A stretch of DNA of 64,000 nucleotides from Klenkia taihuensis (GTDB lineage Bacteria; Actinomycetota; Actinomycetes; Mycobacteriales; Geodermatophilaceae). Positions 30,933 to 42,561 of the stretch are shown piece after piece (position 1 is the stretch's first letter; each line of letters opens with the position of its first letter). The notes beneath the pieces were generated by a model. The model had not been told where the DNA came from. It ran no database searches and worked only from the letters and a program-made list of their open reading frames with translations. The stretch lies in the NCBI RefSeq assembly GCF_900112525.1, contig NZ_FOMD01000001.1, positions 682,001-746,000 of the forward strand. Direction: 5' to 3'. A program made the translations under genes and the position numbers.

Positions 30933-31868
30933 GTGGCGGTGGCGCACCTGTCGATGGAGGTCGACGGGGTGGACGAGGTCGCTGCGGCCCTGGCCGAGCG
31001 GTACCGGGTGGCGGTCGGTGCGGCCGGTCCCCGCCCGGGCCTGCGGCTGGTGCAGGACACCGTCGCCGGCGTCGAGGTCTCGCGGATCCGGTACGGCGTG
31101 GACGCCGTGATCACCGCCCAGGAACCGCGGGCGGGCACCTGCGTGGCCCGGCTGCGCGGCGGGTCGGTCGGCTACCGGTCGGCCGGGCAGCAGCACCGGT
31201 GGGCCGCCGGCGACGTGTACCTCGCCGCGCCCGCCGGCGCGGTGTTCGAGGCCGAGGTGCACGACTGCGAGGCCGACTACGTGGTCATCGACCCGTCGAC
31301 CTTCGCGGCGGTGGCGCAGACCGCCGACGGCGGGGCGCCCGCGCTCACCGGCTGGACGCCGGTGTCGGGCGCGGCCGCCCGGCAGTGGCTGGACACCCTG
31401 GAGTTCGTGCAGCGGACCGCGGCCGGGCCCGCCGTCCCGCCGCTGGTGGCCGGGGCGACGGCGCGGTTGATGGCGGCGGCGACCCTGGCCGCCTTCCCGA
31501 CCGATGCCGCGGTGGAGCCCGCCGCCCGGGACCGCCGGGACGCCCGGCCCCGCATCGTGGCGCAGGCCGTGGCCTTCATCGAGAGCCACCCCGACCGGGA
31601 CCTGACGGTCGCCGACGTCGCGGAGGCCGCGCACGTCACGCCCCGCGCCCTGCAGCTGGCCTTCCGCAAGCACCTGGGCACCACGCCGATGGCGCACCTG
31701 CGCCGGGTCCGCCTGGAGCGGGCGCACGCCGACCTGCTCGCCGCCGACCCCGGCCGCGCCACCGTGGGCGCGATCGCCGCCCGGTGGGGGTTCGCCGACG
31801 CGGGCCGCTTCGCGCGGCGGTACCGGGACGTCTACGGCCGCTCCCCGAGCACCACGCTGCTGTCCTGA
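30933..31868 (+). CDS. AraC-family transcriptional regulator
   Basis: A 311-residue regulator. The N-terminal cupin-like sensor region (about 1-190) ends before a two-helix-turn-helix AraC domain at about 205-305: DLTVADVAEAAHVTPRALQLAFRK, then GTTPMAHLRRVRLERA and GAIAARWGFADAGRFARRYR. GTG 30933 follows GGGGAGG; a second GTG two codons later is also possible. It diverges from the FMN reductase-acetyltransferase pair and may control it. The ligand is unknown. Confidence 0.88.
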   Translation: MAVAHLSMEVDGVDEVAAALAERYRVAVGAAGPRPGLRLVQDTVAGVEVSRIRYGVDAVITAQEPRAGTCVARLRGGSVGYRSAGQQHRWAAGDVYLAAPAGAVFEAEVHDCEADYVVIDPSTFAAVAQTADGGAPALTGWTPVSGAAARQWLDTLEFVQRTAAGPAVPPLVAGATARLMAAATLAAFPTDAAVEPAARDRRDARPRIVAQAVAFIESHPDRDLTVADVAEAAHVTPRALQLAFRKHLGTTPMAHLRRVRLERAHADLLAADPGRATVGAIAARWGFADAGRFARRYRDVYGRSPSTTLLS

Positions 31869-31881
31869 CCGCTCCTCGCCG

Positions 31882-32544
31882 TCAGCGCACGTCGAGGAGC
31901 GGGACGAACACCTGCCCGACCAGCGCCTCGACCTCGCGCCCGGACAGGGGGTCGGGCTGGTCGACGTAGCGGGACCACCACAGCGCCCGCAGCACCCGGT
32001 CCGCGGTCCCCTCGCGCCGGGTGGGCACGGCCCGGCCCCGAGCGCGTTCGGCCCCGACGACGCGGGCCAGGACGCCGCTCAGCGGCCAGCGGACGACCTC
32101 GTCCAGGGCGCCCTGCACCACGAGGCTGGTCCGGGCCTCGCCGAGCAGGGCGGCTGCGGCCCGTTCACCGCGGTCGAGGTCCCGCGTCCAGGGGTGCAGC
32201 ACCGTGGCCAGGTCGCCGGCCAGGGATGCGGTGCTCGGCGCGCGCGGGACCAGGCTGCAGGTGCGGACCGCGTCGGCGGCGAGGTGTGGCATGTCGGGCC
32301 AGCGCCGGTAGACCCCGGCCCGGCCGGCGCCGGCCCGGGAGGCGACACGCTCGATGGTGAGCAGCGAGAGGCCACCCTCGGCGAGGACGTCGACCGCCAC
32401 GGCCAGCAGGCGGGTCGTCAGCTCCTCGTCCCGCGGCCGGCCGCCGCGCACCGGGCCGGGGTCGGACGGTGGACGGCGCTCGGGCCGCGCCCGTGGGGAC
32501 GGTGCCCTGCCCTTCGGTGACGGGTCCGCGGTGGGGGAGACCAT
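31882..32544 (-). CDS. TetR-family transcriptional regulator
   Basis: A 220-residue protein. A disordered, Arg/Pro-rich N-terminus of about 35 residues precedes the TetR helix-turn-helix: DEELTTRLLAVAVDVLAEGG, LTIERVASRAGAGRAGVYRRW. The C-terminal region resembles TetR_C_11/TetR_C_16 domains. ATG 32544 has CAGGAG upstream. It converges on the AraC gene with 13 bases between stops. No divergent target gene is adjacent, so its regulon is unclear. Confidence 0.85.
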   Translation of the reverse strand: MVSPTADPSPKGRAPSPRARPERRPPSDPGPVRGGRPRDEELTTRLLAVAVDVLAEGGLSLLTIERVASRAGAGRAGVYRRWPDMPHLAADAVRTCSLVPRAPSTASLAGDLATVLHPWTRDLDRGERAAAALLGEARTSLVVQGALDEVVRWPLSGVLARVVGAERARGRAVPTRREGTADRVLRALWWSRYVDQPDPLSGREVEALVGQVFVPLLDVR

Positions 32545-32972
32545 GCTGCGCTCCTGTGCGCCGACGCCCGACGTCGTCGTCGGGCCGGCTCCACGCGGCC
32601 CGGCGCTCGCTCGTCGACGCCCGGCCGCACCGGTGATGAGGATCGTAGATCGACGGTCAGGATCCCTGCACGACCAGATCGACCGGGTCGCCGGGCAGTC
32701 GGCCGGCTGAGCGGACCTCGCCGGCGCCGCCCACCGCGGCGGCGAGCTGTCGGGCTGAGATGGTGCTATTCGCCAGTGTCCGTTGATCCCCGCAGCAATT
32801 CTTGCGCGCATTCCGTGACTGCGCGTCCGAAACGGCAATGAATCGGTGGCACCATTCTGACTTTTTTCACCTCGGCATTTGCGCTGCTCCGTCCGCGCAT
32901 TCGATCAGCAACGGAACAGCGAGACTCGGAAGGCCCGATTGGGCTGGCACCATCCAGGGGCAGCGACTGGTC
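32545..32972. other. Intergenic region of 428 bases
   Basis: No coding frame looks real here. The part from 32760 to 32950 is clearly richer in A/T than its surroundings, including a T6 run near 32872, and probably holds the promoter of the membrane-protein gene at 32973. GATC-GTA-GATC (32641-32651) lies upstream of the TetR gene and may be part of its promoter/operator. Confidence 0.5.
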
Positions 32973-33497
32973 ATGACTCAGCAACCACACCCCCCGATCA
33001 ACGACCCCCGTGACAGCACCCGCGTCGACCGGGACCGCCGCGCCAACCCCGTGGGCGCCTATGCGGCGATCACCGGCATCGTCATCTTCACCATCGCCAC
33101 CTTCCTGTCCTGGGTGTCCACCACCGACCCGGAGGACCCCACGTCGGGGTCCGGGTACGAGACGGACACCGTCATCCCGCTGCTCGCCTACCTGGGGATC
33201 GGGCTGGCCGTGGCGCTGCTCTACGCCATCTCCCGCGCCCGGGGGCGCCAGCACCGCGGCCTGTCCCTGGTCACCATGGCGGTCGGCATCGCGGCCGTCG
33301 GGATCGCGCTGAGCTACGTCTTCGACGCCCCGGGCGCCTTCGAGCGGGGTGCGGACCTCGAGGCCGAGGCCGGGCCGTGGATCGGCCTGGTCGGCGGGAT
33401 CGTGTGGTCGATCGGAGCCGGCCTGTTGGCCAAGGAGCCCGAGGGCGACGACGACTGGCACGAGGCACGGCGAGTGACCGGCAACTCCGCACTCTGA
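32973..33497 (+). CDS. Hypothetical membrane protein (174 aa)
   Basis: A 174-residue protein starting MTQQPHPPINDPRD with a polar N-terminus, then four hydrophobic segments at about 28-48, 72-90, 98-116 and 135-152. Between the first two lies an Asp/Ser-rich loop (STTDPEDPTSGSGYETD), and the end is acidic (EPEGDDDWHEARR). No family is recognised. It is the last chromosomal gene before the left boundary of the tRNA-Gly island. Confidence 0.75.
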   Translation: MTQQPHPPINDPRDSTRVDRDRRANPVGAYAAITGIVIFTIATFLSWVSTTDPEDPTSGSGYETDTVIPLLAYLGIGLAVALLYAISRARGRQHRGLSLVTMAVGIAAVGIALSYVFDAPGAFERGADLEAEAGPWIGLVGGIVWSIGAGLLAKEPEGDDDWHEARRVTGNSAL

Positions 33498-33549
33498 CTG
33501 CTGCAGCGGGCCTCACGCCCCCGCATGGGGCTCGCGGCGCAGCTGCGTG

Positions 33550-33592
33550 AGCGGGTGGCGCAAACCGAACTCGCAGTGTCAGCTTGGGAAGG
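33550..33592. repeat. Left attachment site: partial tRNA-Gly duplicate
   Basis: These 43 bases match the 3' part of the tRNA-Gly gene (42490-42532) at 38 positions, including 15 contiguous bases covering the anticodon loop. The 5' half of a tRNA is absent and the CCA is not kept, so this is a displaced tRNA 3' end rather than a tRNA gene. Confidence 0.85.
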
Positions 33593-33651
33593 ACCAGTGC
33601 GGCACGCAAAAGCCCTGCTCAGAGGCCCTGTTTCGCGTTGTCACCCCGCTC

Positions 33652-33671
33652 ATGACCTAGGAATGACCTAC
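33652..33671. promoter_or_regulatory. Two TGACCTA heptamers: candidate left arm-type integrase sites
   Basis: ATGACCTAG (33652-33660) and ATGACCTAC (33663-33671) are direct repeats 11 bases apart, one DNA turn. They overlap the integrase stop codon. The same heptamer recurs four times near the other end, so they may be integrase or excisionase arm-binding sites. Confidence 0.5.
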
Positions 33672-34828
33672 CGCCTGGGCCCAGGACGGTGCGTGGGGCG
33701 GGGTCGACGCGACGTCGGCGGCGGTGGCTGCGGTGGCCGGATCCGCGCCTCGAGGGCCCGGGCGATCTCGGCGTCGCGGTCGTCGTTGGCGTGCTGGTAG
33801 ATCAGTGCGGCGTCCGGGCTGGCATGGCCGAGCCGGCGCATCAGCTCCTTCGTGCTCGCCCCGGCCGCGGCGGCGAGGGTGGCACCGGTGTGCCGCAGCT
33901 CGTGCAGTCGGACTGGACCGAGCCCGACGGCGTCGGCCGCCCGGCGGAAGGTCTTGCCGAAGTTGGCGACGCTGAGGAAGCCACCGCTGCGGGTGCCGAA
34001 CACGAGAGCGTCCGGGGTGTCCGGCACGTGCCGGTCCATGTGCTTGAGCAACGCGATGCGGACGCTGGTGGGTAGCGCGACCGTGCGGTGGCCGGCCTCC
34101 GTCTTGGGCTCACCGACTACCCAGCGGCCGTCGTAGTAGCGCACGGCCCGCTCGATCCGCAGCCGTTCCCCTTCGTCCAGGACGTCGGACCGGCGGAGTG
34201 CGGCTGCTTCGCCGAACCGGAGCCCGGCGAAGGTGAGGACCATGACCAGCGCGCTGTACCGCTCGGTGCGGGTCGACTGTCCGAGGTGATTGGCGACGGC
34301 GGTGGCCTCGGTGGCGGTCAGCGCCCGGGACGGCCGGGCCGCCTTGGGGGTGGACGCCCCGCGCAGCTTGCACGGGTTGGCCGGGATGGCGTCGTCGGCG
34401 ACAGCAACACCCAGGACGGCGCGCAGCAGGCGGTAGCTCTGCGCGAGCACCGCCGGCCCCGTCGTCGCGGCCGCGGTGGCGTGCCAGCTTCGCACCATCG
34501 CCGGGGTGACGTCGCCGACCTCGACACCGGTCCATCGGTCAGCGAGGTGCAGCCGCCAGAGGTTGGCGTAGAGGACCCGGGTCGAGTCGCGGAGGTCCTG
34601 ACGCTTCAGGTAGTCGGCTGCGAACTCGTCGACCGTGCGGCGGGCGCCCTCGGGTGCCCGCCACATGCGGCGGACGGCGTCGGTCTGCTGGGTGGCCAGC
34701 CAGACCCGCGCATCGGCCTTGGTGGGGAAGGTGGCCGACCGGCGCTTGCCGTCCGGTCCGGTGCAGCGAGCTCGCCACTTGCCCGAGGCCATTTTGTCGA
34801 TGGCCCCGAACGAGGCCCGGGACGCCAT
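33668..34828 (-). CDS. Tyrosine-type site-specific integrase
   Basis: A 386-residue phage-type integrase. The arm-binding/SAM-like N-terminal half includes KMASGKWRARCTGPDGKRRS, an AP2-like minor-groove element, and SAM-like helices at 65-150. The catalytic domain shows R204 in FAGLRFGEAAALR, H309-x-x-R312 in LHELRHTG, H335 in RRLGHASPD and nucleophile Y344 in ALIYQHA. It catalyses integration at the tRNA-Gly 3' part and, with the neighbouring Xis-like protein, excision. It sits at the end of the island next to the left attachment site, as usual for tRNA-integrating elements. Confidence 0.95.
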   Translation of the reverse strand: MASRASFGAIDKMASGKWRARCTGPDGKRRSATFPTKADARVWLATQQTDAVRRMWRAPEGARRTVDEFAADYLKRQDLRDSTRVLYANLWRLHLADRWTGVEVGDVTPAMVRSWHATAAATTGPAVLAQSYRLLRAVLGVAVADDAIPANPCKLRGASTPKAARPSRALTATEATAVANHLGQSTRTERYSALVMVLTFAGLRFGEAAALRRSDVLDEGERLRIERAVRYYDGRWVVGEPKTEAGHRTVALPTSVRIALLKHMDRHVPDTPDALVFGTRSGGFLSVANFGKTFRRAADAVGLGPVRLHELRHTGATLAAAAGASTKELMRRLGHASPDAALIYQHANDDRDAEIARALEARIRPPQPPPPTSRRPRPTHRPGPRR

Positions 34829-34840
34829 GGCGGCCGGCCG

Positions 34841-35062
34841 TCAGACCGCGGTGGGGGAGGGGCCCGTCGAGCGCACGGTCCCGGCGTCGAGGTAGGCGTC
34901 GAGGTCCGACTGCCAGAACCGCAGCGAGCGGCCGGCCTTGGTGTGGGTGAGCCGGCGCTCAGCGACGAGCCGGTAGACCAGGCGGCGCCCGCACCGGAGG
35001 TAGGCGGCCGCGCTGTCGATGTCGTGCAGGCGGTCGGCGGCGCGGTTGCTGGCGGTCGTCAC
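34841..35062 (-). CDS. Excisionase-like helix-turn-helix protein
   Basis: A 73-residue HTH_17/AlpA-like protein: DRLHDIDSAAAYLRCGRRLV forms the winged helix start, then YRLVAERRLTHTKAGRSLRF and QSDLDAYLDAG. Such proteins bend DNA at attachment sites (Xis) or repress integrase. GTG 35062 has a strong CAGGAGG upstream; longer frames lack such a site. It is 12 bases upstream of the integrase on the same strand and is probably cotranscribed with it. Confidence 0.85.
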   Translation of the reverse strand: MTTASNRAADRLHDIDSAAAYLRCGRRLVYRLVAERRLTHTKAGRSLRFWQSDLDAYLDAGTVRSTGPSPTAV

Positions 35063-35144
35063 GGGCTGCCTCCTGGCGCTGGTGCTCACCCGTGCGGGAT
35101 CGCGGGTGCGGTGGCCTGTCGCGCTCAGCAGGTGGCGTGACCGT

Positions 35145-35735
35145 TCACCAGGTGTCATCCCGGCCGGGGTGACGTAGGTGGTCGGGGTCGTATGGGTCGG
35201 CGCGGGTGAACCTGGGCCGCTGTTGGTCGCGCCAGCGGATGGTGCTCCACGCATCCCTGTCCTCGAGTGCCTCGATGAGGGACCGGAGCTCGTAGGCGAT
35301 GCCGATCAGGTACGGGGTGTCGACGTGGTGTCCCGAGACCTGACGGGTCAGCTCGCGGATCAGCCCTTTCCACTCGCGGTTCCTCGGCTCCCGGCGTGGC
35401 TGCGGCCGGGGTGGGGTGGCGGGGACGCGGACGATGCGTTCGACGACCTCGACCGCGCTCAGACCGGACGAGGCGGCGCGTCGTTGCTCCCAAGCCCGTT
35501 GCCGGCAGGAGGCTGAACACCACTTCGGCACCGGCCCCCGAGGCTTCGGGGTGATGGGGCCACGGCACCATCCGCAGCTCACGGCGGCCCGACGGCGGTC
35601 CTCTGCGGGGGCGGGTCCAGCTGGCGTCACAGAGGCATCAGCTGCGCTCGCCTGATGCTGATCGACGGCGGCTCGACGTCGGCGCTCGCGCTCACGTCGG
35701 CGTTCCTGGTCGCGGCGGGCTTGTTGGCTTGGCAT
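35145..35735 (-). CDS. Hypothetical island protein with a Cys zinc-finger-like motif
   Basis: A 196-residue basic protein. An Arg-rich N-terminal coil (RRDQERRRERERRRRAAV) is followed by a C-x2-C...C-x3-C knuckle (CGWCRGPI at about 52-59, then KWCSASCRQRAWEQRR), and a C-terminal helical part (EWKGLIRELTRQVSGHH, then YELRSLIEALED). The knuckle resembles zinc ribbons of proteins common in actinobacterial integrative elements; function unknown. ATG 35735 was chosen; TTG 35744 would add three residues. It lies upstream of the excisionase gene on the same strand. Confidence 0.65.
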   Translation of the reverse strand: MPSQQARRDQERRRERERRRRAAVDQHQASAADASVTPAGPAPAEDRRRAAVSCGWCRGPITPKPRGPVPKWCSASCRQRAWEQRRAASSGLSAVEVVERIVRVPATPPRPQPRREPRNREWKGLIRELTRQVSGHHVDTPYLIGIAYELRSLIEALEDRDAWSTIRWRDQQRPRFTRADPYDPDHLRHPGRDDTW

Positions 35736-36010
35736 GTGATGCAAAGGCGTCGCGCATCAGAAGCAGGTGTCACGACAAGTCGCCGACACCCAAGATGCAA
35801 GAGGTGTGTCGGCTTTGTCTGTTCGGGATCGGTGGTCGGGTGACGGCGAGGTTTGCATGAGCTGGAGTGGCGTTGGCGGAGGTGCTCGTCCACAGGCGGG
35901 GGTGTGGTCCTAAGCGTCCAAAAGTAGCGGCCGGGAGTGCCAGCGGAGGGCCCACCACAAGAGAATTGATCTTGATTGAGCCCGTCCTGGCCTCCCCACA
36001 GGAGCCCGTC

Positions 36011-36230
36011 ATGACCACCACCGAACGCCCCCACGTCACCCCGACCATCGGCAGCCAGGAGCTCTGTGTGAGGTCAACCCGCGCACGCTGCTGGTCGACC
36101 TGAACGTCCGGCATACCGCCGCCGTCGACGCCGACCTGGTCGCCAGCGTGGCCGAGCACGGCGTGCTCGTCCCGATCGTCGGCGTCCGCACCGAGGACGG
36201 GCAGGTGCGGGTGCGAGTCCAACACATTTC
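36011..36230 (+). pseudogene. ParB-like nuclease-domain gene remnant
   Basis: ATG 36011, preceded by AGGAG, opens MTTTERPHVTPTIGSQEL. A frameshift near 36066 moves the continuing homology to another frame: EVNPRTLLVDLNVRHTAAV, then VASVAEHGVLVPIVGVRTED. This is the start of a ParB/sulfiredoxin domain as found in actinobacterial plasmid and ICE proteins. The frame is lost after about 36225, so only the first 70 residues of a much longer gene survive. Confidence 0.7.
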
Positions 36231-36251
36231 ATCGAACACGTGTGCGAGTCT

Positions 36252-36262
36252 GGGGGGGGGGG
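36252..36262. repeat. Homopolymer of 11 G between two gene remnants
   Basis: A run of 11 G bases separates the ParB-like remnant from the next decayed gene. It may be a deletion scar, a slippage site or a sequencing/assembly error. Confidence 0.8.
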
Positions 36263-36269
36263 AGTTACT

Positions 36270-36620
36270 AATCGCCGCTGCCCAGAGGCCGGCGCGCGGC
36301 GTGCCCACGAGCGCCGGGTGGCCCAGGCCCGCGGCCGTGGTCCGCTGCGGACCCTGGCCGATGAGCAGCTGCAGCTGGGCACCCGCCCGGTGACGATCAC
36401 GCCCGAGCGTCGGTCGATGTGGGCGCTGGCCTGGCTGCAGTTCGGGCACACCGACATCCGCGCCACCGTGGTGGTCAAGCGCTGGACCGCCGACGCGGTC
36501 GGCGTCGAGCTCGAGGTGGGGGAGGAGCGGCTGCGCTGCTGGGTATTCAGGGCGCCGTCGAGCACGTCGAAGGCCCGATCCCCCCAGCCCTGCGCTTAAG
36601 ACCGCGCAGCGCAGCCCCGC
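36270..36620 (+). pseudogene. Decayed hypothetical island gene
   Basis: The + frame reads RRAHERRVAQARGRGPLRTL, then GTRPVTITPERRSMWALAWL, QFGHTDIRATVVVKRWTADA and VGVELEVGEERLRCWV, which has the composition of a real protein with no internal stops. A frameshift near 36545 moves the continuation (GIQGAVEHVEGP) to another frame. The 5' end is lost at the poly-G scar. I do not recognise the family; similar proteins are expected in actinobacterial integrative elements. Confidence 0.5.
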
Positions 36621-36701
36621 CGATGGCCACACTGGACAGCCGGACGAGGTCGAGTAGGGGAGTGCGGTCAGGTATGCAGGTGGCGACGCTGACCACCCGA
36701 G

Positions 36702-37006
36702 ATGCGCGAGGTCATCGCCCTCACCGAAGAGCGGCTGACGTGCATCCGCAACGAGACCGACCGCATGGACACCCACCAGCAGCTGGCTGACCTCTAAGCC
36801 GGCTGCTCCGTGCCCAAACCCGCGAGCTCGCCGCCGATGCCGGCCTCGCCCGGCTCCCGCACGGCCGCTGCTGCCTGCTCACCCCGAACCTGCGTGACCC
36901 GGCGCTGAGAGACCTGGCGCGGCTGGCCGCCCTCGACGACGTCAACGAGGACCTGCGCGCCCGGTGCGACACCGCGCTCGAGCACCTGCATCGCGAATCC
37001 CGGTAG
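36702..37006 (+). pseudogene. Frameshifted small island gene
   Basis: ATG 36702 opens MREVIALTEERLTCIRNETD and stops at 36797. The sequence continues in a second frame as SRLLRAQTRELAADAGLARL, then CCLLTPNLRDPALRDLARLA and ends EHLHRESR at 37006. Joined, they would make a helical protein of about 100 residues. A one- or two-base indel near 36793 explains the break; it may be decay or a sequence error. Function unknown. Confidence 0.45.
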
Positions 37007-37048
37007 CGTCGCCGAGGCCACCCCCGCATCCCCTCCAGGAGTACCCCG

Positions 37049-37261
37049 ATGGCAGGTCCAGACGCTGCGACGATCCGCGCGTGGGCACGGGCGGTGGGTA
37101 AGCCCGTCGGCTCCCGCGGCGCCATCGCCGCCGAGCTCTACAACGCCTACCGCCGGGCGCAGATGATCAGCCGCCTGCGCCGCGTCGGCGGCGTGGCGGT
37201 CGCGGTGGCACCCGACGTCCTGCGCGCGATATCCAAGCGCGCCCCCCGTCCCCACCCGTGA
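37049..37261 (+). CDS. Lsr2 C-terminal-like DNA-binding mini-protein
   Basis: A 70-residue basic protein. ATIRAWARAVGKPVGSRGAI-AAELYNAYRRA (about 7-37) matches the DNA-binding domain of Lsr2, the actinobacterial AT-rich DNA silencer. The N-terminal dimerisation domain of Lsr2 (about 60 residues) is missing, and the RGR minor-groove motif reads RGA here. The C-terminus is Arg/Lys-rich (SRLRRV, then ISKRAPRPHP). CAGGAG precedes the ATG. It may act as a stand-alone binder or a competitor of host Lsr2; this is inference. Confidence 0.65.
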   Translation: MAGPDAATIRAWARAVGKPVGSRGAIAAELYNAYRRAQMISRLRRVGGVAVAVAPDVLRAISKRAPRPHP

Positions 37262-37284
37262 CCTCGTAGGCCGGTGCGGGTTGG

Positions 37285-37431
37285 CTACTGCACGAGGCGG
37301 GCCGCCGACACCGAGGCGGTCTGACGCTCGGCGGTCAGCTCGCCAGCTAGGCCAGCGTTCCGCTGTAGTTGAGTGAACGCTGCAGCGCCCGAGTGGTGGC
37401 GGGCCTTCGCGGCCCGGGACAACGCCCGCAT
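37285..37431 (-). CDS. Possible small protein or remnant (48 aa)
   Basis: The frame MRALSRAAKARHHSGAAAFT continues through QLQRNAGLAGELTAERQTAS to its stop. It could form one helix, but there is no good ribosome-binding site and no recognised family. It occupies the 265-base gap before the Vsr gene and may be a relic of a longer gene extending upstream. Confidence 0.25.
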   Translation of the reverse strand: MRALSRAAKARHHSGAAAFTQLQRNAGLAGELTAERQTASVSAARLVQ

Positions 37432-37526
37432 GGTCTGGTGGAGGGCCGAGCGGACCGCGGCCGCCGCCCGCCTGGCGGGAAAGGGGCTGTCCAAGCGGTT
37501 ACCGGGTCTGCAAAGCTGACGACGAG

Positions 37527-38057
37527 ATGGGTAGCGTCGGGCAGAAGGCGACGGGACGCCCGCGCAGCGTGCGGAGGACCCCGAGGACGACCACTGCTGA
37601 CACCTCGACGGCGAGTACGCCGGCGGTCCGTTCCCGCATGCAAGCCCAGCGGGCCCGAGACACCGGTCCCGAGCTCGCCGTCCGTCGTCTGCTGCACGCA
37701 GTCGGGCTGCGCTACCGCGTCGACCGGGCCCCGCTGAAGGGGATGCGTCGCCGGGCTGACCTGGTCTTCGGGCCAGCTCGGGTGGCGGTTTACATCGACG
37801 GCTGCTTCTGGCACAGCTGTCCACAGCACGGCACCCGGCCGGCCAGCAACGCCGATTGGTGGGACAGCAAGCTAGAAGCCAACCGGCGACGGGACGCAGA
37901 CACTAATCAACGCCTCACACAGGCCGGCTGGGTGGTGTTGCGGGCCTGGGAGCACGAAGACCCCCAGGATGTAGCTGACCGCGTGAGGAAAGTAGTCATA
38001 GCAAGGCGCGGCGACAGAATATCGAGTGACCGGGCATCGAACGAGGGGGCGGCGTGA
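37527..38057 (+). CDS. vsr: Very-short-patch-repair-type (Vsr) endonuclease
   Basis: A 176-residue PD-(D/E)xK-fold endonuclease. Conserved features are RRRADLVF with metal-binding D78, YIDGCFWHSCPQHGTRP (residues 89-105), WWDSKLEANRRRDAD, and GWVVLRAWEHE with W141/E142, matching Vsr of E. coli in order and spacing. Vsr nicks T:G mismatches left by deamination of 5-methylcytosine. The N-terminal 38 residues are Ser/Thr/Arg-rich and not part of the fold, so an internal ATG at M38 is a possible alternative start. It overlaps the cytosine methyltransferase by GTGA, as expected for a repair partner or, in defence clusters, a possible nicking effector. Confidence 0.92.
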   Translation: MGSVGQKATGRPRSVRRTPRTTTADTSTASTPAVRSRMQAQRARDTGPELAVRRLLHAVGLRYRVDRAPLKGMRRRADLVFGPARVAVYIDGCFWHSCPQHGTRPASNADWWDSKLEANRRRDADTNQRLTQAGWVVLRAWEHEDPQDVADRVRKVVIARRGDRISSDRASNEGAA

Positions 38058-39127
38058 GCGCCGGGCAATCCATCACAGCAATCGACCTGTTCTGCGGGGC
38101 AGGAGGACTGTCCGAGGGCCTGCGGCAGGCCGGAATCCCGGTCGCCGGGGGCATTGACGTCGACCCGGCATGCAGCTACCCCTTCGAAGTCAACATCGAG
38201 GCCCCGTTCCTCGAACAGGATGTCCGCGACGTCACCGCAGCCCAACTCAACCGCATCTGGCAGCCAGGCGCGGTGCGGGTGCTCGCCGGCTGTGCGCCTT
38301 GCCAGCCCTTCTCGCCCTACCGCCGCGGCGTCGACACCACCTCCGAGGAGCAGTGGCCGCTGCTGGCTGAGTTCGGGCGCCTGGTGGCCGACACTCGCCC
38401 CGAGGTCGTGACGATGGAAAACGTACCGCGGATCGGCAACGCCGGGGTGTTCACCGAGTTCGTCGAGGGGCTGCGGGCCGCCGGGTACTCCGTGGACTGG
38501 CGCAGCTGCAACGGGCTGCACTACGGGCTGCCCCAGGGCCGGCGGCGACTGGTCCTGCTCGCCTCCCTGCTCGGCCCGCTCAAGGTCCCCGACGGGCCGC
38601 TGCGCCATCGTGCACCCCGCACGGTGCGCGACACCATCGGCGAGCTTCCGGCAGTCGTCGCCGGCGGCGTCGACGCTGCTGACCCGCTGCACAAGGCCCG
38701 GGCGCTCACCGAGGTGAACATCCGCCGGCTGCAGGCGTCCAAGCCCGGCGGCTCGTGGCAAGACTGGCCCGAGGAGCTGCGTGCGCCCTGTCACCGCAAG
38801 GCCAGCGGGTCCACCTTCCGCAACGTGTACGCGCGCATGGAGTGGGACAAGCCCTCCCCGACCATCACCACGATGGCCTACAACTACGGGACAGGACGAT
38901 TCGGTCACCCCGACCAGGACCGGGCCCTCACACTCCGGGAGGCCGCGATGTTGCAGGGGTTCCCGCAGGACTACCAGTTCGTCCGCGAGGGCGGCGATGC
39001 CCGGTTCAATCACCTGGGCCGGCTCATCGGCAACGCCGTCCCCCCGCCGATCGCGGCCGCCGTCGGCGCCGCGATCGTCGAGCACGTCGCGCTGCACACC
39101 GCGGGCCGCCAGGCAGACGCCCCGTGA
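38054..39127 (+). CDS. DNA (cytosine-5-)-methyltransferase
   Basis: A 357-residue C5 methyltransferase with all main motifs: I, AIDLFCGAGGLSEG (residues 9-22); IV, CAPCQPFS with nucleophile C83; VI, MENVP (E122); VIII, LPQGRRRLVLLA; IX, LTLREAAMLQGFP; X, IGNAVPPPI. The target-recognition region (about 190-270) is short, so the recognition site cannot be read from sequence. It transfers methyl from SAM to cytosine C5 in DNA. GTG 38054 overlaps the Vsr stop and its own stop overlaps the ATPase gene, so all three proteins should be co-expressed. Confidence 0.95.
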   Translation: MSAGQSITAIDLFCGAGGLSEGLRQAGIPVAGGIDVDPACSYPFEVNIEAPFLEQDVRDVTAAQLNRIWQPGAVRVLAGCAPCQPFSPYRRGVDTTSEEQWPLLAEFGRLVADTRPEVVTMENVPRIGNAGVFTEFVEGLRAAGYSVDWRSCNGLHYGLPQGRRRLVLLASLLGPLKVPDGPLRHRAPRTVRDTIGELPAVVAGGVDAADPLHKARALTEVNIRRLQASKPGGSWQDWPEELRAPCHRKASGSTFRNVYARMEWDKPSPTITTMAYNYGTGRFGHPDQDRALTLREAAMLQGFPQDYQFVREGGDARFNHLGRLIGNAVPPPIAAAVGAAIVEHVALHTAGRQADAP

Positions 39128-41256
39128 CCCCCCGCCGTGGACGAGGCCGGAACGTCGCCGCCCGCCAGAAGCCCGCCGCATCCGCAGCCCCCGAGCCCCC
39201 CGCCGCAGCGGCCCCGTCGGCGGAGCTGCTCCCGGACGACGACGGTCACCTGTACTCGATGACCGTGGACCTCTCCGTCCTGGAGGCGCTGGGCATCAAC
39301 CTGTACAGCAACGCCGCCGCAGTGCTCTCCGAGCTGGTGGCCAACGCCTACGACGCCGACTCCACGCTGGTGGCCATCGATTGGAAGAACCACGGCAGCA
39401 AGGTCGTCGTGGCCGACGACGGCGCCGGCATGACCAGGCAGGAACTCAACGACAGGTTCCTCAAGGTCGGATACAAGAAGCGCCTTACCGAGGGCCTGGT
39501 CTCCCCGCGGTGGGAGCGCCCCTACATGGGCCGCAAGGGCATCGGCAAGCTATCGGTCTTCTCCATCGCCGAGACCGTCACGGTCTATTCGACCAAGGAC
39601 CAGACGAGCAACGGCCTCCAGATCAAGGTCCCGGCCCTGGAGGAGGCCATCCGTGCGGGCGAGCCCTACCACCCACTGCCCGTCAACGTCCCCAAGGAGT
39701 ACGCACGCCGGGGGACGGTCATCGTGCTCGAGGACCTCAAGCACAAGCGCGCCGACCTGACCGCAACGGCCCTACGCAAGCGGCTGGCACGCAGGTTCGA
39801 CGTGCTGCACCAGACCCCGCCCGAGGAGGGGGGGTTCTACATCGCCATCGACGCCAAGAACATCACCTACGCCGACCGGCAGGAGCTCAAGAAGCTGGAG
39901 TTCGTCTGGGAGTTCGGTGAGGACCGGATGCCTGGTGAGGTGCTGCCGACCGGCATCACCAGGTTCGATCTGCCCGACACCGTCTCCTCCTCGGAAGGCT
40001 GGAAGGTACGCGGCTGGATCGGCACCGCACGCAGGCCCACCGACCTCACCGACGACGAGGAAGCCGGCTCGCTGAAGAACATCATCGTCCTGGCCCGGGG
40101 GCGCCCCATCCAGGAAGGCATCATCGAGAAGCTGGACTTCAGTCGGATCTTCGGCAACTACGTCACCGGTCAGGTCGAGGCGGACTTCCTTGACCTCGAC
40201 GGCGACTACGGCGACATCGCCACCAGTGACCGGCAGCGTCTCATCGAGGACGACGAACGGGTTATCGCCCTCCAGAAGTTCCTCCGCGAAGCCTTCGTGA
40301 AGGCCTCGGACCAGTGGAGCGAGCACCGGCCCAAGAAAGAGGCCCAGGACGTCCTCGGGCGCTTCCCTGCCCTCAAGGACTGGGTCGAGGCGCGCCCCAC
40401 CGGCCAGCAGGAAGCGGCCAAGACCATGATTGGGACCATCGCTGCCCTGGCACTAGAGAAGAAGACCGAAGCCGCTGACCGGGCCACACTTTTCCGGTCA
40501 GGTGTACTGGCGTTCGAGCGGATCGGGCTGCGGGACACCGCCGCCCAGCTGGGTCGCCTGGAAGAGCTCGGCGGGCTGCAGGCCGCTGATTTGTTGCCGT
40601 TATTGGGCAGCCAGGAGGCATACGAAGCCGGCCTGTGGGTTGACATCCTGCGCTCCCGGGTCGAGGCCATCTCCACCTTCCGCTCCATCACACGCAGCGA
40701 CGAGAAGGAGAAGGTCGTCCACAAGCACCTGTTCGACAACCTGTGGCTGCTTGACGCCTCCTGGGAACGGGCATCGGTGGGCGGCAAGATGGAGGAGAAC
40801 CTCCGAGACATCCATCCCGGCTTGTTCGCCCGCGGCGAGCAGGGGGACGAGATCACCGGCCGCATCGACATCAGGTACGCCACCAGCAGCGGCCGACACG
40901 TCATCGTGGAACTCAAGCGCAGTAGCGCCCGCCCCACCGTGACCGACCTGCAGACCCAGGGCCTGAAGTACTTCAACGCCCTCGACAGCATCCTCGAGCA
41001 GAGGCAGCGTCCCGACCGGGACATCGAGGTGATCTTCGTCCTGGGGACCCCACCCAGGACGCCGACCAAGACCTCCCGGCAGACGGCTGATGAGCACATC
41101 CACGACATGCTCAAGGGCATGAACGGGCGGTACGTCCTGTACGAGGCACTCATCAACAACGCCGAGCACCAGTACCAGGAATACCTCGAAGCCAGCGACA
41201 AAGCGCGGGACCTCGACAAGCTAATGGCCAGCCTCGATCAGGCCGAAAGCGAGTAG
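39124..41256 (+). CDS. GHKL (paraMORC/Hsp90-like) ATPase with C-terminal PD-(D/E)xK nuclease motif
   Basis: A 710-residue protein. After a disordered Ala/Pro-rich start (1-40), the ATPase shows motif I ELVANAYDAD (E70, N74), motif II VADDGAGM (D98, G100, G102) and motif III MGRKGIGKLSVFSIAE (136-150), typical of MutL/MORC-type GHKL ATPases; an S5-like transducer (about 250-400) should follow. The C-terminus contains GRIDIRY and VIVELKR, giving D582 and E596-x-K598, the PD-(D/E)xK nuclease signature. Fused ATPase and nuclease coupled to a C5 methyltransferase and Vsr strongly suggest the restriction/effector subunit of a paraMORC-type defence system. GTG 39124 overlaps the methyltransferase stop. 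Confidence 0.85.
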   Translation: MTPRRGRGRNVAARQKPAASAAPEPPAAAAPSAELLPDDDGHLYSMTVDLSVLEALGINLYSNAAAVLSELVANAYDADSTLVAIDWKNHGSKVVVADDGAGMTRQELNDRFLKVGYKKRLTEGLVSPRWERPYMGRKGIGKLSVFSIAETVTVYSTKDQTSNGLQIKVPALEEAIRAGEPYHPLPVNVPKEYARRGTVIVLEDLKHKRADLTATALRKRLARRFDVLHQTPPEEGGFYIAIDAKNITYADRQELKKLEFVWEFGEDRMPGEVLPTGITRFDLPDTVSSSEGWKVRGWIGTARRPTDLTDDEEAGSLKNIIVLARGRPIQEGIIEKLDFSRIFGNYVTGQVEADFLDLDGDYGDIATSDRQRLIEDDERVIALQKFLREAFVKASDQWSEHRPKKEAQDVLGRFPALKDWVEARPTGQQEAAKTMIGTIAALALEKKTEAADRATLFRSGVLAFERIGLRDTAAQLGRLEELGGLQAADLLPLLGSQEAYEAGLWVDILRSRVEAISTFRSITRSDEKEKVVHKHLFDNLWLLDASWERASVGGKMEENLRDIHPGLFARGEQGDEITGRIDIRYATSSGRHVIVELKRSSARPTVTDLQTQGLKYFNALDSILEQRQRPDRDIEVIFVLGTPPRTPTKTSRQTADEHIHDMLKGMNGRYVLYEALINNAEHQYQEYLEASDKARDLDKLMASLDQAESE

Positions 41257-41523
41257 ACCGCCTTCCCGTCGGGCCGCACGCCTCAGGCAACCCCCGCCCG
41301 CTCGACAACGTTGACGATCAATCCACAAGGGGTTCAGCCGACGTCGGACAGCACGCCCTAGACGGCCGACCCGCGACCAGGGGAGTCGGGAGCGCAAGCA
41401 CGCCTCCTGCTATAGATGGCCCGGCCGGGGCGGCCATGCAGATCTCTGGCTTCCTCCGGTCTAGCGGGGTGAGCGTCGTTGGCGGGCGGCGTTGCGTGCA
41501 GATCGGGTCGTGTACGGGCCGGG

Positions 41524-41649
41524 GTCGAGCTGGTGTCGGTCACCCCGACCGGCGTGGGGCAGCGGGTGCTGGCCCGGACGACCGTGGAGATCGAGGACGG
41601 CAGCAAGCCTGCATGCGTCCTGGACGGACTGAGCGTGGTCGTGCCCTGA
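41524..41649 (+). pseudogene. C-terminal fragment of a MaoC-like (hot-dog) protein
   Basis: The frame VELVSVTPTGVGQRVLARTT followed by VEIEDGSKPACVLDGLSVVV-P-stop resembles the last strands of MaoC-like hydratase/thioesterase domains (the EI-DGSKPACV pattern). Nothing recognisable precedes it, so it is a fragment carried into or left inside the island. Confidence 0.4.
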
Positions 41650-41679
41650 GCTTCACGCCTTCGCGGGGCCGCCCGGCTG

Positions 41680-41823
41680 CCGCAGGCGGGCGGTGCCAGG
41701 TGGCTGCCAGGCGACCGAGTCGGGCAGCCACCTCGGCGTCGCGGCGCTCGGCGGCGTGCTGGTAGGTGAACGACGATGCCGCCCTGGCCAGCGCACGGCT
41801 CGACACCGTCGTGCTCACCGCCC
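41680..41823 (-). pseudogene. C-terminal relic of a second tyrosine integrase
   Basis: The - strand frame reads LARAASSFTYQHAAERRDAE, then VAARLGRLAATW. It lines up with the end of the intact integrase (ALIYQHANDDRDAEIARALE), including the catalytic tyrosine. All upstream catalytic parts are missing. It suggests that another related element once integrated at or near this tRNA end. Confidence 0.6.
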
Positions 41824-42364
41824 AATAAACTCGGACTAGCTGGGGACCAGGCCCGGCGGGATCGGCAGAGGCGTCCGTCCGCAATTGGCTGTCTTGAGGG
41901 CTGCTTGTCGGGGTGACGTCCTGGCATGTGGTGACGTCGGACCGGCGTCGACGGGCCGGACGACGGACACTGTTATCTCTGTCCGGTCCCCAATGCGGGG
42001 CCTCGCATGGATCTGTCACCCCTCCGCCTCCGGCATCTGCGCAGCTCACAGGGCGCTTTACGAGCCAGATTCCGTGTCCGTAGTCGGTGCGTTGGTCACA
42101 TAGTTCGCCGAGGCATGCGTTGAGGCCGCTGCCACCACCCTGACGTACGGCCACGTCGGAATCGACACCTGATCGCTCCTCCATGGGGTGACAGGCCGCC
42201 CGGGTGTTGGAGGCGTCGCCGCCGCCCGCCCGTGTCGGGCCGAAGCTTCGACGAGACGCGCCGGAGCGGGTGCTGCTCGGGTGCCGCAGGTGAGCAGACG
42301 GGCGCAGGACCCACCGGCCGCACCGGACAGGGGTGACGTCGGCGGTGCCATCGACGGGCCCGGC

Positions 42365-42424
42365 GTGACCTAGTCATGACCTAAGTGGGAGCGAAGTTAG
42401 GTCACAGAGGGGGTCGTAGGTCAT
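42365..42424. promoter_or_regulatory. Four TGACCTA heptamers: candidate right arm-type sites
   Basis: GTGACCTAG (42365-42373) and ATGACCTAA (42376-42384) are direct repeats 11 bases apart. TTAGGTCAC (42397-42405) and GTAGGTCAT (42416-42424) are the same word inverted, 19 bases apart. With the pair at 33652-33671 they bracket the island. Confidence 0.55.
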
Positions 42425-42487
42425 GAATGACCATGCTCAGCAGCCCGGAATGATCTTCGGAATAAGGCTCTGACCTGCGGTTTTGTA

Positions 42488-42561
42488 TGGAGCGGGTGAC
42501 GAGAATCGAACTCGCACTGTCAGCTTGGGAAGCTGATGTTCTACCATTGAACTACACCCGC
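42488..42561 (-). tRNA. tRNA-Gly, anticodon CCC
   Basis: Read on the minus strand, the acceptor arms GCGGGTG and CACCCGC pair, with discriminator T and an encoded CCA (bases 42488-42490). The D-arm region is GTAGTTCAATGGTAGAAC, the anticodon arm is AGCTT-CCC-AAGCT, and the T arm is GCGAG-TTCGATT-CTCGT. The mature part is 71 bases plus CCA. It appears functional and is the integration target of the adjacent island, which lies on its 3' side. Confidence 0.95.
42490..42532. repeat. Right attachment site within tRNA-Gly
   Basis: The 3' part of the tRNA-Gly gene, 38 of 43 positions identical to 33550-33592. The uninterrupted 15-base core 42518-42532 covers the anticodon loop and is the likely crossover region. 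Confidence 0.85.

What the first reader, a model, noticed from the sequence alone, without database searches (positions are those of the whole stretch)
37527..41256. Compact Vsr + C5-methyltransferase + GHKL ATPase-nuclease defence module
Seen: three genes joined by 4-base GTGA overlaps. They encode a Vsr-fold endonuclease (D78, W141/E142), a complete C5 cytosine methyltransferase (C83, E122), and a 710-aa protein that pairs a MutL/MORC-type GHKL ATPase (E70/N74, D98-G102, GRKGIGKLS) with a C-terminal D582...E596-x-K598 nuclease signature. Known: paraMORC GHKL ATPases have been placed in restriction-modification neighbourhoods (Iyer, Abhiman and Aravind). Inference: the ATPase-nuclease is the restriction subunit, the methyltransferase protects host DNA, and Vsr either repairs deaminated sites or cuts too. 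No separate restriction enzyme or SF2 helicase is present, which makes this minimal form unusual.
Basis: partly seen in the sequence, partly recalled or inferred. Interest (0 to 1): 0.8.

Follow-up and report, generated by a model that had tools for sequence, protein, structure and literature searches.

The report
HgiDII-type restriction-modification operon with Vsr
This is a three-gene bacterial DNA-cutting defence system of an already named restriction-enzyme family, with an ATPase built into the cutting enzyme; the operon itself is ordinary, but relatives of its cutting enzyme also sit inside some larger anti-phage operons.

Summary
In detail: three intact ORFs (Vsr 37527-38057, C5 methyltransferase 38054-39127, GHKL ATPase-nuclease 39124-41256) joined by two GTGA overlaps, with the quoted residues conserved. 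The novelty claim does not hold. NCBIfam names the ATPase-nuclease a BbrUII/HgiDII family restriction enzyme (752 bits, cut-off 550), so the "missing" restriction enzyme is a described type II family. M.HgiDII and M.BbrUII are reported to recognise GTCGAC. The architecture matches paraMORC3 (2008); a GHKL-nuclease of that type, VcSduA, needs both active sites for defence. The layout is not unusual: of 100 non-redundant relatives labelled, 71 have the same kind of methyltransferase within 3 kb, 26 of these also a Vsr. The operon is probably cargo of a ~9-kb element at tRNA-Gly(CCC). Most likely it is a type II R-M system with a nucleotide-controlled nuclease and a deamination-repair Vsr. Not found in print (searches; open-licence library): the same family lies inside DISARM-type operons (14 of 127 labelled rows), near drmB/drmC (6) and near a DruE2-type gene (2). 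A reverse sample shows that this is an optional accessory.

The parts
37527..38057 (+). Vsr endonuclease (V), 176 aa
   Evidence: TIGR00632 125.6 bits over cut-off 97.85; Pfam Vsr 65.5; D78, H96, W141 32/32, E142 26/32
38054..39127 (+). C5 cytosine methyltransferase (M), 357 aa
   Evidence: Pfam DNA_methylase 159 bits, TIGR00675 over cut-off; C83, E122 invariant 9/9
39124..41256 (+). BbrUII/HgiDII family restriction enzyme (R), 710 aa: GHKL ATPase about 45-205, S5-like domain about 230-360, long helices about 378-540, C-terminal nuclease about 526-710
   Evidence: NF050001 752.2 bits over cut-off 550; PADLOC REase_II 3e-138; model pLDDT 85.8, pTM 0.77; conservation; domain limits are my reading of the secondary structure
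33547..33592 (+). putative att repeat: 38/46 copy of the tRNA-Gly 3' half
   Evidence: next best match anywhere in the window 25/46
42488..42533 (+). putative att repeat within tRNA-Gly(CCC) gene 42488-42561 (-)
33668..34828 (-). tyrosine integrase of the probable host element
   Evidence: Pfam Phage_integrase 65.2 bits
34841..35254 (-). HTH_17 (excisionase-like) protein
   Evidence: PF12728 36.3 bits over cut-off 27; excisionase role is inference

Best explanation
A type II restriction-modification operon of the BbrUII/HgiDII family. M methylates a cytosine in the recognition site, most likely GTCGAC (inferred from the family), and protects the host. R recognises the same unmethylated site in invading DNA and cuts with its C-terminal PD-(D/E)XK-type domain. 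Its N-terminal GHKL + S5 module is inferred to dimerise on ATP, as MutL/MORC/Hsp90 do, and to hold or license the nuclease on DNA. Vsr repairs T:G mismatches left when the methylated C deaminates. The operon probably arrived on a ~9-kb integrative element in tRNA-Gly(CCC). Shown here: gene content, family membership of all three genes, conservation of both active sites, recurrent gene neighbourhood, an att-like repeat. Inferred: recognition site, ATP control, Vsr role, mobility, phage defence.
For: NF050001 752 bits vs cut-off 550 and PADLOC REase_II. Family MTases reported to recognise GTCGAC: M.HgiDII (PMC5867850 passage), M.BbrUII (PMC5005818 passage). The MTase region between motifs VIII and IX (limits 174-289 are my reading) is as conserved as the core over 69 full-length rows (mean 0.65 vs 0.59), fitting one shared specificity. 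71 of 100 non-redundant relatives have such an MTase within 3 kb, 26 of these also Vsr; counting the window, the MTase is within 155 bases of R's homology region in 64 of 72. In 57 relatives with at least 5.5 kb of both flanks, 18 Vsr hits lie under 1.5 kb from R, none at 1.5-3 kb, 2 at 3-5.5 kb. The V-M-R order on one strand recurs in L045, L136, L163, L165. ATPase and nuclease residues invariant 101/101. VcSduA, of the same architecture: ATPase and nuclease mutants abolish phage defence (PMC12137116 passages).
Against: No GTCGAC avoidance in the window: 121 seen, 124.5 expected, which neither supports nor refutes a recently gained, methylated site. M.HgiDII and M.BbrUII sequences were not held by name, so the site was not compared directly. 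C-terminal fold search: no PDB match at E <= 0.001; the best E-values are MenB (crotonase-fold) chains. Not every relative has a linked family MTase: 29 of 100 do not (9 DISARM class 1-type, 5 near drmB/drmC, 2 near DruE2, 6 with another C5 MTase, 7 with none of these). In Chania a predicted GTCGAC MTase has a short predicted REase (gene coordinates 318782-319516), so such MTases do not always pair with a 700-aa R.
Confidence: 0.8

Rival explanations
1. The GHKL-nuclease is a Shedu/VcSduA-like sensor-nuclease that responds to phage DNA structure rather than to one recognition site; the methyltransferase only tunes self-recognition.
For: VcSduA has this architecture and restricts phage; a word search of that paper's main text found no 'methyltransferase'. 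SduA_C appears below cut-off in 7 of 10 C-terminal pieces and at the cut-off in the distant relative L007/G056 (27 bits with neighbours; 23.5 as one protein). Relatives without an adjacent MTase exist.
Against: The window protein itself has no SduA_C hit; profile comparison with three Shedu-family proteins was weak (probability 40). 71 of 100 relatives keep the same MTase type. The family is named after restriction enzymes whose MTases are reported site-specific.
Confidence: 0.15
2. Vsr is a second restriction nuclease rather than a repair enzyme.
For: Vsr lies near R in four loci beside drmB/drmC where my C5 MTase profile found nothing (L067, L079, L086, L087; L087 is a near-duplicate of L086).
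Against: D78 and H96 of the GCFWH motif are kept, with a TIGR00632 match over cut-off. Vsr is optional: 26 of 71 MTase-bearing relatives. In those four loci flanks are limited and MTases of other kinds were not searched for.
Confidence: 0.08
3. The operon is a decayed or silent remnant of the element.
For: Over cut-off in 1 of 21 relatives searched, the window's own genome, and no match in the 8 other genomes of the genus, as for any recent island.
Against: All three frames intact, both junctions overlapping, active-site residues kept.
Confidence: 0.03

Closest known systems
BbrUII/HgiDII family restriction enzyme (NCBIfam NF050001)
   Same: Match of residues 44-704 to the whole profile 1-659, 752 bits over the 550 cut-off; adjacent C5 MTase
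   Different: Recognition site untested here; 43-residue N-terminal extension
paraMORC3 (Iyer, Abhiman and Aravind 2008, PMC2292703; parts 1 and 2 of 3 of section 3 read)
   Same: GHKL + S5-like + C-terminal RE-fold with E-D-ExK; described neighbourhoods include cytosine methylases and Vsr
   Different: The parts read do not name HgiDII or BbrUII; no helicase partner here, which that paper reports for a minority of MORC neighbourhoods
VcSduA, a Shedu type I-D protein (PMC12137116, passages)
   Same: N-terminal GHKL ATPase and C-terminal PD-(D/E)xK nuclease, both needed for defence
   Different: No SduA_C hit for the window protein; MTase and Vsr partners here; direct sequence comparison with VcSduA not made
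Escherichia phage PhiR44_1 'ParaMORC3' + Dcm (PV340563)
   Same: 34% identity over 93% of R, convergent Dcm gene, NF050001 751 bits
   Different: Carried by a phage between portal and replication genes; no Vsr found by my profile in the stretch fetched
DISARM class 1-type operons with an embedded NF050001 protein (L061, L075 and others)
   Same: R of the same family: six such loci checked score 854-875 bits, above the window's own 752
   Different: R sits between DrmMI and DrmA without the family C5 MTase; the window operon has no such neighbours

Membership tests
BbrUII/HgiDII family restriction enzyme (NF050001) | curated score over 550 bits | tested here: met
   752.2 bits
BbrUII/HgiDII family restriction enzyme (NF050001) | cognate C5 methyltransferase gene adjacent | tested here: met
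   38054-39127, Pfam 159 bits; 71/100 relatives share it within 3 kb
BbrUII/HgiDII family restriction enzyme (NF050001) | recognition and cleavage of GTCGAC | not testable with these tools
   specificity of family MTases from PMC5867850 and PMC5005818 passages; no biochemical data here
paraMORC3 | GHKL ATPase with motifs intact and S5-like domain | tested here: met
   motifs 101/101; Hsp90 and MORC2 matches, best E 1.4e-12
paraMORC3 | C-terminal RE-fold nuclease with E-D-ExK | tested here: met
   E529/E557, D582, E596-x-K598 invariant 101/101; alpha/beta topology. The fold itself was only weakly matched, so the motif is met and the fold is inferred
Shedu (SduA_C, PF14082) | SduA_C domain over cut-off | tested here: not met
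   no hit in the window protein; relatives below or at cut-off
Vsr | TIGR00632 over cut-off and catalytic Asp | tested here: met
   125.6 bits; D78 32/32. Equivalence of D78 to E. coli Asp51 and of I90 to Thr63 is recalled, not computed
DISARM | DrmMI, DrmA and DrmB partners | tested here: not met
   No DrmMI match in G000 at E <= 1e-50; window ORFs scanned give no Drm family except the MTase's similarity to DrmMII models. DrmA and DrmB were not searched genome-wide

The most novel reading that the evidence does not exclude
The BbrUII/HgiDII protein is a portable ATP-gated DNA-clamp nuclease: a type II restriction enzyme whose cutting is licensed by a MutL/MORC-like ATPase, and the same module has been taken up as the nuclease of some DISARM-type (and perhaps Druantia II) operons, whose DNA-degrading component is described as unresolved in the DISARM paper I read passages of.
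Probability: 0.3. Interest if true: 0.65.

Novelty: new member of a known kind. Interest (0 to 1): 0.35.

Why it matters
The operon itself adds one more member to a named R-M family. The wider point is testable: a family named for site-specific restriction enzymes has the GHKL-nuclease architecture of paraMORC3 and VcSduA, and the same family is embedded in some DISARM-type operons. I did not find these three joined (searches; listings of an open-licence library, Druantia not searched). It offers a candidate nuclease for a subset of DISARM systems, where passages of PMC9142583 call the way DNA degradation is achieved a mystery.

Tried and rejected
Considered and dropped: (1) 'minimal unusual defence module' - rejected, because the restriction subunit is a named family and the layout is common in the labelled set. 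(2) Filing R as Shedu - not done, SduA_C not met in the window protein. (3) GTCGAC avoidance as evidence of the site - no signal. (4) An empty integration site in relatives - not shown. The tRNA side matches in all 8 other same-genus genomes, but none of nine retrieved loci (L244-L252) has a match to the left flank 31000-33546 in the DNA held, and that flank matches only 1 of 8 other same-genus genomes, in part. Against a simple boundary: sequence just left of the tRNA (within 42132-42480) is shared by 4 of those 9 loci, up to 361 bases at 86%, so either related elements sit there or the boundary is elsewhere. For an element: G705 and G706 also have a second copy of the tRNA 3' half about 10 and 15 kb to the same side of this tRNA. 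(5) DISARM embedding as a general rule - rejected. R is absent within the 1.5 kb held beside DrmMI in 11 uncut loci of the window's phylum (L206-L216) and in L236, L237, L239, L240 of Burkholderiales; it is present only in L238, the genome on which that search was centred. Because five of the 14 positive loci have R about 2.2 kb from DrmMI, I checked whole genomes: over cut-off in 0 of the 6 other Burkholderiales genomes with DrmMI, and of the 11 phylum genomes only in G263, on another contig. L236 appears to carry a different GHKL-like protein after DrmMI (read by eye). (6) First genome-contig scan with the window protein alone found nothing; the alignment query worked. (7) Profile comparison with three Shedu-family proteins: probability 40, inconclusive.

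Rows dropped before counts: of 158 loci fetched, those whose family match did not span profile positions 1-6 to 640 or beyond were left out (126 kept, plus the window = 127 rows; 101 after dropping rows 85% or more identical, window included). The structure alignment A3 has 90 rows and A4 66. MTase statistics used 69 full-length of 72 MTase rows, window included. The tree was a quick one (LG+G4, SH-aLRT only). Context labels come from profiles that I built from PADLOC-named proteins and their clustered relatives, not from PADLOC on each locus.
Full report
OBSERVATION. Both junctions read GTGA. The start of the third gene is not certain, because family homology begins at residue 44. The quoted residues are real and conserved: MTase C83 and E122 in 9 of 9 rows; E70, N74, D98, G102, D582, E596 and K598 in 101 of 101 non-redundant rows, window included, with two haloarchaeal rows outside that set carrying D for E596; Vsr D78 and W141 in 32 of 32 and E142 in 26 of 32.

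IDENTITY. NCBIfam assigns the large protein to NF050001, BbrUII/HgiDII family restriction enzyme, at 752 bits against a cut-off of 550; PADLOC calls it REase_II at 3e-138. This removes the main claim of the finding, that no separate restriction enzyme is present. PMC5867850 (passages) states that M.HgiDII recognises GTCGAC, and PMC5005818 (passages) says the same of M.BbrUII. I could not compare sequences with those enzymes directly. Indirect support for one shared specificity is that the region between motifs VIII and IX of 69 MTases (limits are my reading) is as conserved as the catalytic core (mean 0.65 against 0.59). GTCGAC is not avoided in the window (121 seen, 124.5 expected).

STRUCTURE. 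AlphaFold2 on a 90-row alignment gave pLDDT 85.8 and pTM 0.77. Foldseek matches the N-terminal part to Hsp90/TRAP1 and to MORC2 with DNA, best E 1.4e-12. The C-terminal domain modelled alone (pLDDT 84.4) has the helix-strand-strand-helix-strand order expected of a PD-(D/E)XK core, but no PDB match reaches E 0.001. The best E-values belong to MenB (crotonase-fold) chains; among nucleases in the list, N.BspD6I (6qnz) has probability 0.96 at E 0.13. Pfam SduA_C (Shedu) appears below cut-off in 7 of 10 C-terminal pieces but not in the window's own; it reaches 27 bits with its neighbours in G056, or 23.5 as one protein (L007). A profile comparison with three Shedu-family proteins was inconclusive. 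The nuclease assignment therefore rests chiefly on invariant residues and topology.

NEIGHBOURHOODS. The alignment query returned 79 genome loci and 79 viral-contig loci; these are the best-scoring hits, not a random sample. Of 127 rows with a near full-length R (window included), 63 have the family C5 MTase within 3 kb, 27 have it with Vsr, 14 lie in loci with both DrmMI and DrmA, 6 near DrmB or DrmC, 2 near a DruE2-type gene, 7 have another C5 MTase and 8 none of these. Among the 100 non-redundant relatives (window left out) the figures are 45, 26, 9, 5, 2, 6 and 7. Vsr hits in 57 full-flank relatives fall under 1.5 kb from R 18 times, at 1.5-3 kb never, and at 3-5.5 kb twice. The window's V-M-R order on one strand recurs in L045, L136, L163 and L165; L076 has M-V-R; the commonest order with Vsr is M-R-V with all three on one strand (9 of 27 rows).

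DISARM. In the 14 rows with DrmMI and DrmA, R lies between the two, within 175 bases of DrmMI in nine and about 2.2 kb away in five; a PifA-like gene fills that gap in L063, the one member of its cluster that I tested. On L061 PADLOC named a DrmA/DrmD-type helicase (best model DrmA 885 bits, next DrmD 783), DrmMI (1834 bits; a type IIG model also scores 1587), DrmA and DrmB. Six of these loci searched with NF050001 score 854-875 bits, above the window's 752. In the tree the 9 non-redundant DISARM rows fall in an 11-row group (SH-aLRT 97) with one drmB/drmC row and one R-M row, nested among R-M rows; the label needs 3 changes against a shuffled mean of 8.8. The reverse test limits the claim: beside DrmMI, R is absent in the 1.5 kb held in 11 uncut loci of the window's phylum and in 4 of 5 uncut Burkholderiales loci, the fifth being the genome on which the search was centred. 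Whole-genome searches agree: NF050001 is over cut-off in 0 of the 6 other Burkholderiales genomes with DrmMI and, among the 11 phylum genomes, only in G263 on another contig. It is an optional accessory. PMC9142583 (passages) says that DrmC is dispensable and that how degradation is achieved has remained a mystery, which is why this is worth a test.

MOBILITY. The operon has GC 0.68 against 0.74 for the window and lies between a tyrosine integrase (33668-34828) and a tRNA-Gly(CCC) gene (42488-42561). The 3' half of the tRNA is repeated beside the integrase, 38 of 46 bases at 33547; the next best match in the window is 25 of 46. Two same-genus genomes, G705 and G706, also show a second copy of the tRNA 3' half about 10 and 15 kb to the same side of this tRNA, as expected of an integration hotspot. 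NF050001 is over cut-off in 1 of 21 relatives, the window's own genome, and has no match in the 8 other genomes of the genus. Against a clean picture: no empty site was shown, and up to 361 bases just left of the tRNA are shared with 4 of 9 relatives' loci, so the right boundary is unsure. Integration at this tRNA is probable, not proved. Relatives lie on plasmids, viral contigs and in phage PhiR44_1, where the gene is labelled ParaMORC3 beside Dcm.

MECHANISM. Best reading: M protects the site, R cuts unmethylated copies with its C-terminal nuclease under control of an ATP-driven GHKL clamp, and Vsr repairs deaminated sites. For the clamp-nuclease coupling the nearest experiment is VcSduA, where ATPase and nuclease mutants each abolish defence (PMC12137116, passages). 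Whether GTCGAC cleavage by this family needs ATP is open as far as I could see; early assays of HgiDII as an ordinary type II enzyme are recalled, not read.

KNOWN OR NEW. The system is a new member of a known kind. Iyer et al. 2008 (PMC2292703, parts 1 and 2 of 3 of section 3 read) describe paraMORC3 with this architecture and name Vsr and DNA methylases among the neighbours of the MORC and paraMORC genes. What I did not find stated is the joining of the HgiDII/BbrUII name, paraMORC3/VcSduA and DISARM embedding; that rests on searches of an open-licence library, seen as listings plus the passages cited. Papers seen only in listings are not cited for content.

Noticed in passing
window 33547-42533: Probable ~9-kb integrative element at tRNA-Gly(CCC) with integrase, HTH_17 gene and att-like 38/46 repeat carrying the R-M operon; G705 and G706 of the same genus show similar second tRNA-half copies 10-15 kb from this tRNA.
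   Followed up: partly
L258 (G000:C5:32000-51000): The same genome holds a second defence-like locus: two C5 methyltransferases on either side of MzaC- and MzaD-like genes, with a GHKL-containing ORF (1020 aa) next to one MTase, resembling an MZA-type system.
   Followed up: partly
L061-L066, L068-L070, L072, L075, L078, L085, L125: NF050001-type proteins embedded between DrmMI and DrmA of DISARM-type operons, without the family C5 MTase.
   Followed up: yes
L236 2-1261 (-): In another DISARM-type locus the gene after DrmMI starts like a different GHKL ATPase (read by eye); L237 and L239 carry another protein there, so the slot looks variable.
   Followed up: no
L034 (phage PhiR44_1 PV340563): Phage-borne R of this family labelled ParaMORC3, convergent with a Dcm gene, between portal and replication genes.
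   Followed up: partly
L082, L092, L098, L099, L104 (one uncultured Cenarchaeum assembly): Five separate R-like genes on one archaeal chromosome record; none has the family C5 MTase within 3 kb. L082 (NF050001 767 bits) has one about 5 kb away and L092 has another C5 MTase.
   Followed up: no
L038 and L039: Haloarchaeal plasmid relatives have D instead of E at the nuclease position equivalent to E596.
   Followed up: no
L206 and L008 (G060:C38): A DISARM-type DrmMI and a below-cut-off GHKL relative (212 bits, profile 1-399 only) with a Vsr-like and a PLD-like neighbour (the latter read by eye) lie about 8 kb apart on one contig.
   Followed up: no
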